From NCBI GenBank assembly GCA_027489245.1, contig JAIYAC010000025.1, positions 62,001 to 126,000 of the forward strand: DNA of 64,000 nt. Direction: 5' to 3'. Positions 20,048-26,846 of the stretch are shown here, in pieces. The first letter of the stretch is position 1. The number at the start of each line of letters is the position of its first letter. The notes below the pieces were generated by a model. The model was not told the DNA's origin. It ran no database searches and saw only the letters and a program-made list of their open reading frames with translations. The translations under genes and the position numbers were made by a program. Source of the DNA: Neisseriaceae bacterium. Its GTDB lineage: Bacteria > Pseudomonadota > Gammaproteobacteria > Burkholderiales > Chromobacteriaceae.

Positions 20048-20254
20048 GGTGTTCGGTGTTGAGCCTGGTTACAGCCGCCAGGTGGCGAGCCATGTAAAAA
20101 ACAGTTTTGCTTAGTCATATATACATGGCTTTTGTGAGGATTGTCGCGGCCAACGTGCTATCTGATAACGCTTCGTGGCAGCAAGCGGGACGCAGTGCAG
20201 CAGATCGGTTTATAATTTCAGCCATTTTTGCCTCACTCAGACCGAATTCACACC

Positions 20255-23077
20255 ATGACCATGGAACTTGCCAAAAGCTACGAGCCGGGCGACATCGAAC
20301 GTCGCTGGTACGATCAATGGGAACAGTCCGGCTACTTCAAGCCGCACATGGATACCACCAAGCCGTCCTTTGCCATCCAGCTGCCGCCGCCTAACGTCAC
20401 CGGCACGCTGCACATGGGCCACGCCTTCAACCAGACCATCATGGATGGCCTCACGCGCTACTACCGCATGAAGGGCGACAACACGGTGTGGATTCCGGGT
20501 ACCGACCACGCCGGTATCGCCACCCAGATCGTGGTAGAGCGCCAGCTGGCCGAGCAAGGCATTAGCCGCTTCGACCTGGGCCGCGACGCCTTTACCGCCA
20601 AGGTATGGGAATGGAAAGAAAAATCCGGTGGCACGATCACCAGCCAGATGCGCCGTGTCGGCTGCTCGGTAGACTGGGGCCGTGAATACTTCACCATGGA
20701 CGACGTCCGCGCCGACGTAGTCACCGAAGTGTTCGTGCGCCTGTTCGAGCAAGGCCTGATCTACCGTGGCAAGCGCCTGTCCAACTGGGACGCCAAGCTG
20801 GGCACCGCCATCTCCGACCTCGAAGTGGTTTCCGAGGAAGAAGACGGCCACATGTGGCACATCAAATACCCGGTAGTGGGTAGCGACGAGTCCATCACCG
20901 TGGCCACCACCCGCCCGGAAACCCTGCTGGGTGACGTCGCCGTCGCCGTGAACCCCACCGACGAGCGCTTTGCCCACCTGGTCGGCCAGCTGGTCGAGCT
21001 GCCGCTTACCGGCCGCCAGATTCCGGTGATTGCTGACGAGTATGTAGATAAAGAATTCGGCACCGGCTTCGTCAAGATCACCCCGGCCCACGACTTCAAC
21101 GACTACGAAGTCGGCAAGCGCCACAGCACCCAGCTCATCAACGTGATGAGCCTGGACGCCACCATCCTGGCAAAAGCACAAGTATTCGGCTTTGACGGCA
21201 GCGCCCAGGGCAGCATCGAGCTGCCAGCCGCCTACGCCGGCCTGTCCACCGCCGACGCGCGCAAAGCCATGCTGAAAGACCTGGACGCCCAGGGCCTGCT
21301 GCTGGACACCAAACCGCACAAACTGATGGTGCCGCGCGGCGACCGTACCGGTACCGTGATCGAGCCGCTGCTTACCGACCAATGGTTCGTGGCCATGAGC
21401 AAAGTGGGCGAGGGCGACGCCACCGGCCAGTCCATCGCACAAAAAGCCATCGACGCTGTTGCCAGCGGCGAAGTGCGCTTCATCCCGGAAAACTGGGTCA
21501 ACACCTACAACCAGTGGATGAACAACATCCAGGACTGGTGCATCAGCCGCCAGCTGTGGTGGGGCCACCAGATCCCGGCCTGGTACGACGAAGACGGCAA
21601 CATCTACGTTGGCCGCACCGAAGCCGAAGCCCAGGCCAAAGCGCCAGGCAAAACCCTGCGCCGCGAACAAGACGTACTGGACACCTGGTTCAGCTCCGCC
21701 CTGGTGCCGTTCTCCACCCTGGGTTGGCCGCAAGACACGCCAGACCTCAACGCCTTCGTGACCAGCAACGTACTGGTTACCGGCTACGAAATCATCTTCT
21801 TCTGGGTTGCCCGGATGATCATGATGACCAAGCACTTCACCGGCAAAGTACCGTTCCGTGACGTTTACATCCACGGCATGGTGCGCGACCACGAAGGCAA
21901 GAAGATGTCCAAGTCGGAAGGCAACGTCATCGACCCGGTCGACCTGATCGACGGCATCGCCCTGGCCCCGCTGGTAGAAAAACGCACCACCGGCCTGCGC
22001 CGCCCCGAAAAAGCCCCGGCCATCGCCAAAGCCACCGAAAAGCTGTTCCCGGACGGCATCCCGGCCTACGGCACCGACGCCCTGCGCTTCACCATGGCCA
22101 GCTACGCCACCCTGGGCCGCTCGGTCAACTTCGACTTCAAGCGCGCCGAAGGCTACCGCAACTTCTGCAACAAGCTGTGGAACGCCACCCGCTTCGTCAT
22201 GATGAACGTGGAAGGCAAAGACTGCGGCCAGGACGAAACCCTGCCGCTGGAATACAGCTTTGTCGACCAGTGGATCATCGGCCGCCTGCAGCAAGCCGAA
22301 GCCGACGTGACCAACGCGCTGGAAACCTACCGCTTCGACCTGGCCGCCCAGATCATCTACGAGTTCATCTGGAACGAGTACTGCGACTGGTACGTGGAGC
22401 TGGCCAAGGTACAGCTGCAAACCGGTAACGAAGCGCAGCAGCGCGCCACCCGCCGCACCATCGTGCGCGTACTGGAAGTGGCCCTGCGCCTCACCCACCC
22501 GCTGATGCCGTTCATCACCGAAGAGCTGTGGCAAACCGTGGCCCCGCTGGCCAACGCCAAGCACACCGACAGCATCATGCTGGCGCAGTGGCCAGTGGCC
22601 GTACCCGAGAAGATCAATGCCGCGGCCAACGCGCGCATGGACGCCTTCAAGGACATGGTGAACGCCGTGCGTAACCTGCGCGGCGAAATGGGTATCGGCC
22701 CGGCTGTAAAAGCGCCGCTGTTCATCGAAACCGCCGACGCCAGCATCGCCGACTTTGTGCCGTACCTGAAGCTGCTGGCCCGCCTGACCGAAGGCAGCAT
22801 CGTGGCCGCCCTGCCAGCCGACGACGCACCGGTGGCCATGTCGGGCAACGCCCGCCTGATGCTGAAGGTGGAAGTGGACAAAGCCGCCGAAACCGCCCGC
22901 CTGACCAAAGAGCAGGGCAAGGTAGAAGCGGAGCTGGCCAAGCTGACAGCGAAACTGGAGAAGCCAGGCTACATCGATAAAGCCCCGGCGCATCTGGTAG
23001 AGCGTGATAAGGCGCAGCTGGCTGAGCTGAATGACAAGCTGGAGAAGGTGAAGGCGCAGCTTGTGAAGTTGGCTTAA
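20255..23077 (+). CDS. valS: Valyl-tRNA synthetase
   Basis: A 940-residue class I synthetase that charges tRNA-Val. The HIGH motif is HMGH (residues 53-56) in [14 protein letters not shown] and the KMSKS motif is KMSKS at residues 550-554. The end is the usual ValS coiled coil ([15 protein letters not shown]). Length is normal. The start at 20255 ([13 protein letters not shown]) is supported by family alignment; the ribosome site is weak. A TATAAT at 20211-20216 may be its -10 element. Two GTTGGCCGCA motif copies lie in the gene (21608, 21722). A 950-residue open frame on the opposite strand is a bias artefact. Confidence 0.97.
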
Positions 23078-23142: not shown

Positions 23143-23982
23143 TTGAGTGAAAATAAGTCAATGGAAAGACTTGTCCGCGAATTGCTGCCTGGTCATCTTG
23201 GAGTTTATGCGCAATATGAGTCTGGTAGACTAAATGTAACTGATTTTTTATCTTCTTATCTTAAGGCTATTGCTGCATTTGAACGGGCTAACAAATTATT
23301 TTTGACCAGAATTAGTCCTGGTGCTTCTGCATTCAAATATAAGTTATATGAATTCGAAAAGGGTTCACTTTTTGGTAAGGTTTTCCCATCAAAAAAAGGT
23401 GACGAGGTGGCAGCCTCTCAGAAGTCGTCATTCTCGCTTTTTAATGTTTTTGAAGGAGAGAAGTTGCCTTCTGTAAATAAGTTGGATAAAGTGGCTGTTG
23501 ATTTGAATGAAAATTTGAAAGATTTTGGATTGCCTGATTGTAATATTGTTACGCCGGAGACTTTGTTGCTTGATGCATTGCAGGTTTCAAAGGTTTTAAA
23601 AGGGATTTCTTTGGATCAGAGTGTGTTCATTGCAGCCAATGATGATTGTGCTGAGGTGGCAGGAATCGCTAGAGTGAATGATTATTATGTTGAGGATGTG
23701 CTTTCATTTGTGGAAAGCATGGAGGTTAGAAATGGGCAGTTGCTTGAAGTGAAGAAGCCTGAGTATATTGATAAGTCTGCTTGGTCATTTGTTTATAATG
23801 GAAAAGTTATTGTGGCTAAAATTATTGATGAGGAGTGGCTTGAGAATTTTCAAAGGGGTAGTATAAGTGTTCCTCCGGGTACGAAACTATTGGTTGATCT
23901 TGTTGTATCTAAGGTTAGGAGTACGGTTGGCAAGAGTTTGAAAGAAAAGTTTGCTGTGCAGAGGATTGGAGGTAAGATTTGA
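23143..23982 (+). CDS. Uncharacterised AT-rich accessory protein, first gene of a two-gene module
   Basis: A 279-residue soluble protein I do not recognise. AAAGGAG at 23129-23135 and a TTG start at 23143 define the beginning; the nearby ATG at 23124 runs into a stop. Base and codon use are far more AT-rich than in any neighbour (TTT, AAT, ATT, TTG common), so it was probably acquired. The N-terminal third is helical and polar. The last 60 or so residues (GKVIVAKIIDEEWLENFQRG to GTKLLVDLVVSK) look like a small beta-rich domain of the kind seen at the end of many uncharacterised accessory-locus proteins; that is an impression, not an assignment. Its stop overlaps the start of the membrane-protein gene by three bases. 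Confidence 0.7.
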   Translation: MSENKSMERLVRELLPGHLGVYAQYESGRLNVTDFLSSYLKAIAAFERANKLFLTRISPGASAFKYKLYEFEKGSLFGKVFPSKKGDEVAASQKSSFSLFNVFEGEKLPSVNKLDKVAVDLNENLKDFGLPDCNIVTPETLLLDALQVSKVLKGISLDQSVFIAANDDCAEVAGIARVNDYYVEDVLSFVESMEVRNGQLLEVKKPEYIDKSAWSFVYNGKVIVAKIIDEEWLENFQRGSISVPPGTKLLVDLVVSKVRSTVGKSLKEKFAVQRIGGKI

Positions 23983-24398
23983 TTAAATTTAATTTTAGCA
24001 AGGCGGCTTTGATTGATTTTATTTTCATAATGCTTCCTTTTTTAATTTTCCTTATAGTTAATTCTGTGTCTGGAAGTGGGGCTCTAGTCAAAACTTTCTA
24101 CTCTTCGGAGGTTGGTTTTGCGGCTAGTATTTTGTATGGGCAGTTGGTTGCGAAATTTGTTATAGAGGTTGCTGATTCAAAAGGAGTTGTTTCTGCAGAT
24201 CTTGCTGGGTTAGTTGTTACAATCTTGGTTGCACTTTTGCTAATTGCATCAATAGTCCTTGCGATTGTTTTGATTTATAAACCGCTTTCTGATTGGGTGT
24301 ATTGGTTTCAGATATTCTTGTTTATTGTGGCAATTTATTTGCATTTTGACTTTTATGAAAAGCTTGAGGCTTTTAAATCAAGAGATTCGAATGATTAG
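23979..24398 (+). CDS. Small multi-pass membrane protein, second gene of the AT-rich module
   Basis: A 139-residue protein with three clear hydrophobic segments (about residues 9-30, 75-99 and 107-126) and a weaker fourth near 44-65. It ends in a charged tail (KLEAFKSRDSND). The TTG start overlaps the upstream stop (TTGA), and GGAGG is 5-6 bases before it, so the two proteins are made together. AT-rich like its partner and unlike all other genes here. No family recognised. A soluble protein plus a small membrane protein in a two-gene insert is a layout also used by defence and toxin-immunity modules, but nothing in the sequence proves such a role. Confidence 0.7.
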   Translation: MIKFNFSKAALIDFIFIMLPFLIFLIVNSVSGSGALVKTFYSSEVGFAASILYGQLVAKFVIEVADSKGVVSADLAGLVVTILVALLLIASIVLAIVLIYKPLSDWVYWFQIFLFIVAIYLHFDFYEKLEAFKSRDSND

Positions 24399-24442: not shown

Positions 24443-24752
24443 TCCCGCAAGGTTGGCCGCAAACGTTTACGGTATTGCGGCCAACCTTTTGTTTTGTGTA
24501 CCGCTGCGCGGCGTGATGATCTGCCGCTTTCCGCGCGGCGGCGGGGTACTTTCTTTTGCGTCGCCAAAAGAAAGTACCCAAAGAAAAGGCGACCCGTGGC
24601 TGCTCGAAACCCCGTGCCAAACGGCCCGCCCCAGGCGCCGCCGAACTCGCCCCTTGCTAACGGCGCGGGGCTCAAACAAATCGGCGTCTTAAAACCTGGG
24701 GCAAACCGTTTGACCCGGCTCGCGCCAACGGGGTATGGCGGCGTCGGTACGG
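24443..24752 (+). repeat. Long intergenic repeat, copy A
   Basis: About 310 bases with no credible gene. In order: an inverted pair of the AAGGTTGGCCGCA motif (24449-24461 and 24476-24488), a GC-rich stretch, a hairpin with a perfect 15-bp stem and CGTCGC loop (24544-24579, stem starting GGGTACTTTCTTTTG), and a conserved tail ending near GACCCGGCTCGCGCCAACGG. Copies B (24900) and C (25577) repeat the same order. Several frames stay open through it, but the encoded peptides (RGTFFCVAKRKYPKK type) are the well-known spurious products of this repeat. Confidence 0.85.
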
Positions 24753-24809
24753 TTCTATTGATTGACTGGTTTGTGTGCTATGGGCCTCTAATGCTTTTTG
24801 TGGCCTTAA

Positions 24810-24849
24810 AAGGTTGGCCGCAAATATTTGCGTTACTGCGGCCAACCTT
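24810..24849. terminator. Inverted motif pair between repeat copies A and B
   Basis: AAGGTTGGCCGCA (24810-24822) and TGCGGCCAACCTT (24837-24849) form a 13-bp stem with a 14-base loop. It is terminator-like in shape, without a long T-run. Confidence 0.6.
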
Positions 24850-24856
24850 GTGCAGC

Positions 24857-24900
24857 CCGTAGGTTGGGCTGAATGAAATGAAGCCCAACATTTACCGCGC
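24857..24900 (+). repeat. Short AAGCCCAAC-type repeat
   Basis: GTAGGTTGGGCTGAATGAAA followed by TGAAGCCCAAC, a small hairpin sequence placed just before copy B. A close variant stands at 25223-25266, and degenerate forms precede copies A and D. It resembles a widespread bacterial intergenic repeat. Confidence 0.65.
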
Positions 24901-25216
24901 CTCACAGAGTTGGCGGCATGCCGTCACGGTATGGCGGCCAACCTTTTTGTTTTGTGGTGCCGCTGCGGGGCGTATTGGCATGCCGCTTTCCGCGCGGCGG
25001 CGGGGTACTTTCTTTTGCGTCGCCAAAAGAAAGTACCCAAAGAAAAGGCGACCCGGGGCTGCTCGAAACCCCGTGCCAAACGGCCCGCCCCAGGCGTCGC
25101 CGAACTCGCCCCTTGCTAACGGCGTGGGGCTCAAACAAATCGGCGTCTTAAAACCTGGGGCAAACCGTTTGACCCGGCTCGCGCCAACGGGATGGGGCGG
25201 CGCCGGTGCGGTGGTG
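24900..25216 (+). repeat. Long intergenic repeat, copy B
   Basis: Nearly identical to copy A over about 300 bases. The first motif arm is degenerate (AGTTGGCGGCA) and the second is intact (24934-24945). The 15-bp hairpin is at 25003-25038, exactly the same sequence as in A. Confidence 0.85.
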
Positions 25217-25272
25217 TCTTAACGTAGGGTGGGCTGAATGAAATGAAGCTCAACGTTCACCGCGCCCTGTGC

Positions 25273-25309
25273 GGTTGGCCGCAAACATTTACGTTATGCG
25301 GCCAATCTT
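25273..25309. repeat. Inverted motif pair (one arm with a mismatch)
   Basis: GGTTGGCCGCA (25273-25283) and TGCGGCCAATCTT (25297-25309). The right arm has one change from the consensus. It lies in the gene-free stretch between copies B and C. Confidence 0.6.
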
Positions 25310-25360
25310 GTGCCGCAACCCATGCCCCCTTGGGGAGCGCCGGTAAAAAGTCTGCCGCAA

Positions 25361-25434
25361 GGTTTTAAGCGGCCGATTTGTTTGAGCCCGGAGCCGTTAG
25401 CGTAGGGCGAGTTCGGCAGCGCCTTGCGGCGGGC
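25361..25434 (-). repeat. Inverted partial copy of the long repeat
   Basis: Read on the minus strand, this segment matches the tail of copies A-C (GCCGAACTCGCCC ... GGGCTCAAACAAATCGG ... TTAAAACC) with a few changes. It shows the element can also sit in the opposite orientation. Confidence 0.75.
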
Positions 25435-25576
25435 TTTTTACCGGGGTTTCGCGGACCGCGGGGGCGAGGGGGGATGAAAGGGGGCGGCGACCCGCCCCCT
25501 TCCTGCCTGCCGGGCGGAACCGGCTGTAACTATCATCCGCGCAGCGGATTCAAAGCCTGTTATGTGATCGCACGAC

Positions 25577-25915
25577 AAAATGAAAGGTTGGCTGCATGCT
25601 GTCATGGTATTGCGGCCAACCTTTTGTTTTGTGTGCCGCTGCGCGGCGTGATTGTCTGCTGCTTTCCGCGCGGCGGCGGGGTACTTTCTTTTGCGTCGCC
25701 AAAAGAAAGTACCCAAAGAAAAGGCGACCCGGGGCTGCTCGAAACCCTGTGCCAAACGGCCCGCCCCAGGCGCCGCCGAACTCGTCCCTCGCTAACGGCT
25801 CGGGACTCAAACAAATCGGCGTCTTGCGCGTGCGAATCTTCGATTCGCTCAGCACAACCCTGGGGCAAACCGTTTGGCCCGGCTCGCGCCAACGGGGCAG
25901 GGTGGCGTCGCTGCA
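25577..25915 (+). repeat. Long intergenic repeat, copy C
   Basis: Same order as A and B: motif pair (25584-25596 with one change, 25611-25623 perfect), hairpin 25679-25714, and conserved tail. About 30 bases, including the small hairpin GCGAATCTTCGATTCGC, are inserted where A and B have only AAA. Confidence 0.85.
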
Positions 25916-25916
25916 G

Positions 25917-26010
25917 CCCAACGTTTACCGCGCCCCGCAAGGTTGGCCGCATGCCGTCACGGTGTTGCGGCCAACCTTTTTTTGTTTTGTGGTGTCGCTG
26001 CGCGGCATGC
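25917..26010 (+). repeat. Long intergenic repeat, truncated copy D
   Basis: It begins like the others with GCCCAACGTTTACCGCGCCC, a perfect motif pair (25939-25951, 25966-25978) and TTTTGTTTTGTGGTGTCGCTGCGCGGC. It then diverges before the 15-bp hairpin and leads into the leader of the binding-protein gene at 26094. Confidence 0.75.
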
Positions 26011-26093
26011 TTTTTTGCTGCTTTCATCCCGCTGGCGTGATGATCTATGCGAAATTTCGATATGATGCTGCTGGATGACATTCGGGATACGCC

Positions 26094-26846
26094 ATGCTCA
26101 AACCGGTGCTTTTATGCTTGCTGCTGCTGTTGCCGTGCGCGCACGGCCTGGCCTTGCGTATTGCTACCGGCGAGCTGCCTCCCTACGCCACGCAGGAGCG
26201 GCCGGATCAGGGGGTGGCGCTGCAGATTGTGCGCCGTGCCTTTGCGCTGGCTGGCCATTCGGTGGAATACCATTTCATGCCCTGGACGCGTGCGCTGGAG
26301 GAAACCGCCAGCGGTCGCTGGGATGCCACGGCGTACTGGGGGTATAACGCCGAGCGTAATGCCCGCTTTCTCAGCAGCGATACCGTGCTGAACGAGCAGT
26401 GGGTGTTTGTGCACCGCCGTGACATGCGTTTTGACTGGAAGGTGCTGCCAGACCTGCAGCCTTACCGCCTGGCGATTATTGCCAATTACACCTACACCCC
26501 CGAGATGTGGCAGCTGCTGCATCAGGGCAGGCTGCAGGGCGATGCCACGCCGGATGACTCGCTGGCCTTGCGCAAGCTGCTGGCGCGGCGGGTGGATGTG
26601 GTGCCGATGGAGCGCAATGTGGCGTGCTATCTGCTGGCCAGGCACTTTACGATGGCGCAGTCAGAGAAGCTGCATGTTCACCCGCGCTTGCTTACCGACC
26701 AGTTCACCACCCACTTGCTGTTGCCACGGGCGTTGCCGGGGAGTGCGGCCCTGCTGGCGGATTTCAACCGGGGTTTGCAGCAGCTCAAGGCTAGCGGCGA
26801 GCATGCGCGTCTTTTGAAAGGGGTGAGCTGCCCGCGTGGCTGGTAG
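26094..26846 (+). CDS. Periplasmic solute-binding protein, amino-acid type (SBP_bac_3 fold)
   Basis: A 250-residue secreted protein. The signal peptide is about residues 1-19 (MLKPVLLCLLLLLPCAHGLA). The mature part opens RIATGELPPYAT and contains YHFMPWTRALEETASGRWDA, typical of the small extracellular solute-binding family 3. No permease or ATPase gene is adjacent, so it may be an orphan binding protein or part of a sensory pathway rather than uptake. No strong ribosome site is visible. It lies directly after the repeat cluster. Confidence 0.82.
   Translation: MLKPVLLCLLLLLPCAHGLALRIATGELPPYATQERPDQGVALQIVRRAFALAGHSVEYHFMPWTRALEETASGRWDATAYWGYNAERNARFLSSDTVLNEQWVFVHRRDMRFDWKVLPDLQPYRLAIIANYTYTPEMWQLLHQGRLQGDATPDDSLALRKLLARRVDVVPMERNVACYLLARHFTMAQSEKLHVHPRLLTDQFTTHLLLPRALPGSAALLADFNRGLQQLKASGEHARLLKGVSCPRGW

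What the first reader, a model, noticed from the sequence alone, without database searches (positions are those of the whole stretch)
24443..26010. Cluster of long non-coding repeats built on the motif pair
Three near-full copies (A, B, C), one truncated copy (D) and one inverted partial copy lie within 1.6 kb. Each starts with an inverted AAGGTTGGCCGCA pair and carries a hairpin with a perfect 15-bp stem and CGTCGC loop. Copy C has a 30-base insertion with its own hairpin. Almost the same sequence is seen in other proteobacterial genera and produces spurious protein predictions there, so the DNA itself is conserved. It could be a non-autonomous mobile element, a structured RNA, or a recombination-driven array next to the AT-rich insert.
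Basis: partly seen in the sequence, partly recalled or inferred. Interest (0 to 1): 0.65.

Follow-up and report, generated by a model that had tools for sequence, protein, structure and literature searches.

The report
Structured mobile repeat cluster in Vogesella
The cluster is a nest of three different kinds of repeat, and the main one is a folded, non-coding element shared by many proteobacteria that, in this genus, also travels between the ends of a transposon that lands in transcription stop signals.

Summary
The repeats are real, but they are three things. (1) The AAGGTTGGCCGCA pairs are copies of a genus-wide, uptake-sequence-like word: GGTTGGCCGCA occurs 1,284 times in this genome, 1,141-1,510 times in each of 13 genus genomes (Vogesella; own included) and 1-22 times in 48 other family genomes. 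(2) Short GTAGGTTGGGCTGAATGAAATGAAGCCCAACGTTTACCGCG units resemble REPs beside RAYT genes; V. urethralis has a RAYT at this locus. (3) The long block has a 128-nt core (92% of cells paired, 30 of 38 pairs with double changes) and a hairpin whose extra purine tract mirrors its purine arm, a potential intrastrand triplex. It occurs in many beta/gammaproteobacteria; no Rfam family matched. Single copies elsewhere in this genome are missing at orthologous places in relatives. In six Vogesella genomes the core also sits between IS4-type inverted repeats (17 of 19 fetched miniature loci; 11-bp target duplications in 19 of 21 pairs), in terminator-like hairpins; one relative has a full-length IS4-family element with the same ends. 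The window copies lack those ends. Whether the core acts as ssDNA or RNA, and what moved the other copies, is unknown.

The parts
24449..24488 (.). uptake-like motif inverted pair (terminator-like) before copy A
24605..24733 (-). copy A covarying core (model R1, 133.8 bits)
24810..24850 (.). motif inverted pair between A and B
24859..24899 (.). REP-like unit GTAGGTTGGGCTGAATGAAATGAAGCCCAACATTTACCGCG
   Evidence: sequence; similar units flank RAYT genes, by eye
24906..24945 (.). motif inverted pair before copy B (one mismatch in each arm)
25003..25048 (.). copy B hairpin H3 and mirror tract
25064..25192 (-). copy B covarying core (133.6 bits)
25224..25264 (.). second REP-like unit
   Evidence: sequence; by eye
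25271..25309 (.). motif inverted pair (one arm with a mismatch)
25325..25451 (+). inverted copy E, covarying core (119.1 bits)
25470..25560 (.). copy E alternative hairpin module (GGGGGCGG/CCGCCCCC type) with H2 and H1; edges approximate
25584..25623 (.). motif inverted pair before copy C
25679..25724 (.). copy C hairpin H3 and mirror tract
25740..25897 (-). copy C covarying core (77.0 bits) with ~29-nt insertion near 25827-25855 that can form its own hairpin
25939..26037 (.). truncated copy D: motif pair plus first hairpins only

Best explanation
It spreads by borrowing machinery. SHOWN: compensatory structure; the mirror relation of the third tract; presence/absence of single copies between congeners; a subfamily carried between IS4-family ends into terminator-like hairpins with 11-bp target duplications. 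INFERRED: that the IS4 transposase moves these copies in trans; that the window cluster grew downstream of valS, a place where RAYT genes, REP-like units, uptake-like terminators and this element collect and recombine; that the core is kept for folding as ssDNA (transfer, replication or recombination intermediate) rather than as a transcript.
For: Core: 33 sequences from 5 genera of the family, 92.0% of 1,247 cells paired (shuffled mean 71.1%), 30 of 38 pairs changed on both sides, 0 of 500 shuffles reach any of the five measures, slides give 37-45% paired. Third tract: a mirror run of at least 7 in 19 of 20 asymmetric hairpin-arm kinds. Mobility: own copies L007, L008, L009, L011, L013 have 700 bp between the compared flanks here and 265-486 bp in the 24 relative loci where both flanks lie together; R1 finds the core in 8 of 8 own loci (57-145 bits) and in 0 of 20 fetched relative stretches above 11.5 bits. 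IS4: core in 17 of 19 fetched miniature loci; 11-bp duplication with at most 2 mismatches in 19 of 21 end pairs, 9 perfect; A4 or T4 tract beside the target in 19 of 21 against 8.7% of 2,000 random sites, both in 11 of 21 against 0.25%; a 1,389-bp element with the same ends codes for an IS4-family transposase, 247.6 bits. Hot spot: between valS and the same solute-binding gene (83% identical) V. urethralis has a REP_Tyr_transpos gene, the block and the motif pairs; another genus has RAYT and block after valS.
Against: The window copies have no IS4 ends, so their mover is unknown. RAYT is not required now: genus g2 has 0 of 10 genomes with RAYT yet all 10 have a match to the block; own genome has none (it is 88% complete). 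Of 26 RAYT loci searched with 1.5-kb flanks only 7 have the core, and some look orthologous. In the broad named set the fold-energy preference for one strand is fully explained by composition, so strand-specific folding is shown only for the family alignment. A direct run of at least 7 is also found in 11 of the 20 arm kinds, because most arms are nearly symmetric. The second full-length IS4 copy (L337) has only the last 331 codons open from a listed start. No transcript or ssDNA data exist here.
Confidence: 0.6

Rival explanations
1. The core is a structured non-coding RNA (multi-copy sRNA or 3'-end element) and the copies are its genes, some of them picked up by IS4 ends.
For: Extensive compensatory pairing with conserved unpaired stretches (UUUUAAG, UUUGUUUGAG, CGUUAGC, GCGAGUUCGG) and a single preferred strand; found in many genera.
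Against: No Rfam match for it; copies in both orientations in varied sites; no promoter or expression evidence was sought or found; several copies are recent insertions.
Confidence: 0.3
2. The long block is the substrate of RAYT (Y1/HUH) transposases, a giant REP/BIME.
For: Core beside RAYT genes in 7 of 26 RAYT loci and in 9 of 39 fetched Y1_Tnp loci, against 0 of 20 ComP-family loci from the same family and 5 in 400 kb of the own genome; strand-specific hairpins fit ssDNA transposition.
Against: Short REP-like units, not the block, flank several RAYT genes (by eye); genus g2 has the block without RAYT.
Confidence: 0.15
3. Only a local tandem duplication array of no wider meaning.
For: A, B and C lie in tandem with 459- and 676-bp spacing and share the motif-pair-then-block order.
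Against: Same block dispersed in own genome, 51 of 61 family genomes and other families.
Confidence: 0.03

Closest known systems
IS4 family MITEs / IS4 (NCBIfam NF033592; ends of E. coli IS4 recalled, not looked up)
   Same: Terminal inverted repeats TAATGCCAGTCAGTTAA, 11-bp duplications, a matching full-length element with IS4-family transposase
   Different: Cargo is an unrelated conserved folded element that exists without IS4 ends in the window and whose relatives occur in other families; window copies have no such ends
REP / RAYT systems (NCBIfam NF047646)
   Same: Intergenic, hairpin-based, clustered, sometimes beside RAYT; short REP-like units are present in the same cluster
   Different: Block is ~270 nt with a long covarying core, present in a genus in which no RAYT was found
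Intrastrand triplex motif TMECO (Holder et al. 2015, PMC4666352; abstract, sections 15 and 16 and passages read)
   Same: Pyrimidine arm, purine arm, second purine tract in mirror order; intergenic, many copies, proteobacterial
   Different: A/T-richer sequence, part of a larger folded element, tied here to mobile ends; that paper reports no mobility genes near TMECO
DNA uptake sequence of Neisseriaceae (Frye et al. 2013, PMC3630211; passages read)
   Same: Non-palindromic word at about 0.4 (11-mer) to 1.0 (9-mer) per kb, both strands, sometimes as inverted terminator-like pairs
   Different: GTTGGCCGC core lacks the CTG core; that paper found no obvious DUS in Chromobacterium, Pseudogulbenkiania, Lutiella and Laribacter genomes

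Membership tests
IS4-family MITE (the flanked subfamily) | inverted repeats shared with an autonomous element | tested here: met
   a 1,389-bp element with IS4-family transposase and a 1,390-bp relative share the ends with 19 miniature pairs of 186-478 bp
IS4-family MITE (the flanked subfamily) | target-site duplication | tested here: met
   11 bp, at most 2 mismatches in 19 of 21 pairs; not seen at L309 and L342
IS4-family MITE (the flanked subfamily) | transposition by the IS4 transposase in trans | not testable with these tools
   bench assay needed
IS4-family MITE (window copies A, B, C, E) | IS4 inverted repeats at the ends | tested here: not met
   none in the window at up to 4 mismatches
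REP/RAYT substrate | RAYT gene in genomes that carry the element | tested here: not met
   0 of 10 g2 genomes and 0 in own genome although elements are present
REP/RAYT substrate | element flanks RAYT genes | tested here: inconclusive
   7 of 26 loci
Rfam RNA family | match over gathering score | tested here: not met
   window, and 20 other loci
Intrastrand triplex motif | third tract mirrors hairpin purine arm | tested here: met
   mirror run of 7 or more in 19 of 20 asymmetric arm kinds, direct run of 7 or more in 11; with fixed 7-mers, perfect mirror in 10 of 18 asymmetric kinds, perfect direct copy in 0
Intrastrand triplex motif | triplex forms physically | not testable with these tools
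   needs CD/NMR/footprinting
DNA uptake sequence (motif GGTTGGCCGCA) | strongly over-represented, both strands, whole genome | tested here: met
   1,284 against 0 in own genome; 1,141-1,510 in 13 of 13 genus genomes
DNA uptake sequence (motif GGTTGGCCGCA) | ComP-type receptor present | tested here: inconclusive
   PF16732 matches in 61 of 61 family genomes, also those without the motif
DNA uptake sequence (motif GGTTGGCCGCA) | raises DNA uptake | not testable with these tools
   transformation assay needed

The most novel reading that the evidence does not exclude
A class of structured element spread through beta- and gammaproteobacteria, with no match in Rfam 15, that joins a covarying long-stem core to an intrastrand triplex, works as a strand-specific folded nucleic acid and is passed between transposon chassis (IS4 ends in Vogesella, others elsewhere) into transcription terminators.
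Probability: 0.3. Interest if true: 0.8.

Novelty: new variant of a known kind. Interest (0 to 1): 0.62.

Why it matters
A conserved folded element in many beta- and gammaproteobacteria, which the Rfam library used here does not hold, becomes a defined object with a model, a strand and a testable triplex. The IS4 copies give a clean system for terminator-targeted insertion. The genus-wide GGTTGGCCGCA word suggests that uptake-sequence-biased transformation arose, or was re-invented, outside the Neisseria clade, which is directly testable.

Tried and rejected
Rejected: (a) the motif pair as the start of the long block only: the word is genome-wide. (b) Strand preference from fold energies in the broad set: first looked significant (48 against 15 of 69) but shuffles give the same mean difference (-3.9 observed over 110 sequences, -3.8 shuffled, kcal/mol), so dropped. 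(c) RAYT as the only mover. (d) ComP presence as evidence for an uptake sequence: uninformative. (e) Plasmid or phage carriage: no blastn match in either collection. (f) Genome-wide enrichment of facing motif pairs: only 8 facing against 10 back-to-back among 337 ten-mers in 464 kb, 3 of the 8 in this cluster. (g) Own copies L004, L005, L006: L004 is occupied in four relatives and lacks the core in G059; L005 lacks the core in the two relatives fetched but the spacer is only 67-177 bp shorter in six, so other sequence stands there; at L006 G060 has a 2.1-kb gap that holds a RAYT gene. (h) Rfam weak matches lie far below the cut-offs. (i) L309 and L342 show no 11-bp duplication. (j) L353 has one IS4 end only; L344 is a 186-bp form without core. 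(k) My note says 1-25 copies of the word in other genera; one search gives 1-22.

Paper searches: printed sequence strings (0 papers), LLATQKKV, Vogesella with uptake sequence, Vogesella with repeat (10 listed, titles and abstract starts seen, none on this), DNA uptake sequence with Chromobacterium (5 listed), DUS dialects (20 of 43 listed), IS4 with rho-independent terminator (2 listed), MITE/terminator (20 of 31 listed), betaproteobacterial structured repeats, intrastrand triplex (10 listed). PMC12061091: passages only (no mention of Vogesella). Only open-licence PMC papers are held, so absence there is weak evidence.

Full report
Observation. The cluster exists as described: three long direct copies, a truncated fourth and one inverted copy between 24443 and 26037. 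It lies between valS (20228-23077), followed by two ORFs without Pfam match, and a solute-binding protein gene (26094-26846). The window belongs to a 3.51-Mb draft genome. Its genus is Vogesella by inference: contig lengths of two congeners (96,848 and 144,249 bases) equal those of Vogesella urethralis YM-1 and V. aquatica DC21W records.

Three repeats, not one. (1) GGTTGGCCGCA occurs 638+646 times in the genome, its backward control 0 times. The 13 genus genomes, own included, have 1,141 to 1,510 copies each, 48 other family genomes 1 to 22. In 464 kb GTTGGCCGC is the commonest 9-mer, and single-base variants inside positions 2-10 of the 11-mer total 23 against 202 perfect copies. This is what DNA uptake sequences look like; Frye et al. 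2013 (PMC3630211, passages read) describe inverted-pair terminators for such words and report no obvious one in Chromobacterium and allies. Most copies here are single: 8 facing and 10 back-to-back pairs among 337 ten-mers. (2) REP-like units stand at 24859 and 25224; similar units flank RAYT genes in Vogesella (by eye). (3) The long block.

The block. Homologues were found by blastn in 51 of 61 family genomes, 7 of 10 genera. From the loci then at hand 43 cores were extracted; 8 with an insert or over 150 nt were left out (35 remained), I dropped two more (L052, L053), and 33 from 5 genera were aligned. On the complementary strand the named structure pairs 92.0% of 1,247 cells; 30 of 38 pairs change on both sides; no shuffle of 500 reaches any measure. 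So the folded strand is the complement. The covariance model R1 finds the four window cores (77-134 bits; next best 13.4) and matches 36 of 399 genomes of the order in 18 of 158 genera, the weaker ones near threshold. Beside the core stands a hairpin of pyrimidine and purine arms with a downstream purine tract in mirror order; a mirror run of at least 7 is kept in 19 of 20 arm kinds, including changed arms such as AAGAAAAAG with AAAAAGAAGG and AAAAGGAAGAAA with AAGGAAAAGG; direct runs of that length exist in 11, since most arms are nearly symmetric, and 166 hairpin readings had no such tract downstream, mostly the same hairpins read on the other strand by my reading. With fixed 7-mers, 10 of 18 asymmetric kinds have a perfect mirror and none a perfect direct copy. 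This is the layout of intrastrand triplex motifs (PMC4666352; abstract, two sections and passages).

Distribution. With up to two mismatches it is in 13 of 369 genomes of the class and 11 of 398 of the phylum, all 11 within the class. Twenty loci (18 of the named ones, L112, L117) have no Rfam match except one tRNA and one C4 RNA.

Mobility. Eight other copies in the own genome were compared with six relatives through their flanks. For L007, L008, L009, L011 and L013 the spacer is 265-486 bp in all 24 relative loci where both flanks lie together, against 700 bp here. R1 finds the core in all 8 own loci and in none of 20 fetched relative stretches: 17 for these five sites, two for L005 and one for L004. 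L008 carries 17-bp terminal repeats TAATGCCAGTCAGTTAA with one mismatch; L009 and L013 keep one end, and I read 11-bp duplications at them by eye. The same ends occur in 6 of 13 Vogesella genomes. From that list I fetched 20 places, to which L309 and L008 were added: 21 of 22 have both ends; 19 show an 11-bp duplication (9 perfect); 19 have an A4 or T4 tract beside the target, against 8.7% of random sites, and 16 fold at -12 kcal/mol or lower against 38%. L309 is a full 1,389-bp element with an IS4-family transposase; L337, 1,390 bp, has only its last 331 codons open from a listed start. R1 finds the core in 17 of the 19 miniature loci fetched and in neither full element. That E. coli IS4 has similar ends and enters attenuators is recalled, not looked up.

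The window cluster itself has no IS4 ends. In V. urethralis the same interval, between valS and the same solute-binding gene (83% identical), has a REP-associated tyrosine transposase gene, the block in both orientations and the motif pairs. In another genus valS is followed by an AT-rich ORF, a RAYT gene and the block. Across the family the core is within 1.5 kb of 7 of 26 RAYT loci, while 20 ComP-family loci have none. But 10 of 10 genomes of one genus carry the element without a RAYT match. I therefore read the cluster as a repeat nest at a hot spot, the block as a folded non-autonomous element that uses other elements' ends, and leave ssDNA against RNA open (about 6 to 3).

Noticed in passing
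whole genome; window e.g. 139, 2312, 7754, 13596, 21722: GGTTGGCCGCA is a genus-specific, uptake-sequence-like word in Vogesella (1,284 copies here), a finding of its own.
   Followed up: partly
L309:1501-2889 and L337: Full-length IS4-family insertion element in one Vogesella genome and a similar, possibly broken one in V. urethralis, with ends like those of the miniature copies.
   Followed up: partly
L248:2667-3203, L249:2825-3463: RAYT genes at the valS downstream locus in V. urethralis and in another genus; no RAYT was found in the window's (incomplete) genome.
   Followed up: partly
window 23143-24398: Two AT-rich ORFs (279 and 139 aa) without Pfam match after valS; the corresponding place holds a ParA-like ATPase gene in V. 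urethralis and another unmatched ORF in L249, so it looks like a variable slot.
   Followed up: no
L107: In genome G052 several motif-pair plus element units lie in a close array over about 2 kb, another nest like the one in the window.
   Followed up: no
window 25470-25560 and own loci L005-L009: An alternative GGGGGCGG/CCGCCCCC hairpin replaces the A/T-rich one; a following CCCCCGC tract is, by eye in L005-L007, again in mirror order, so the swap may keep triplex potential.
   Followed up: no
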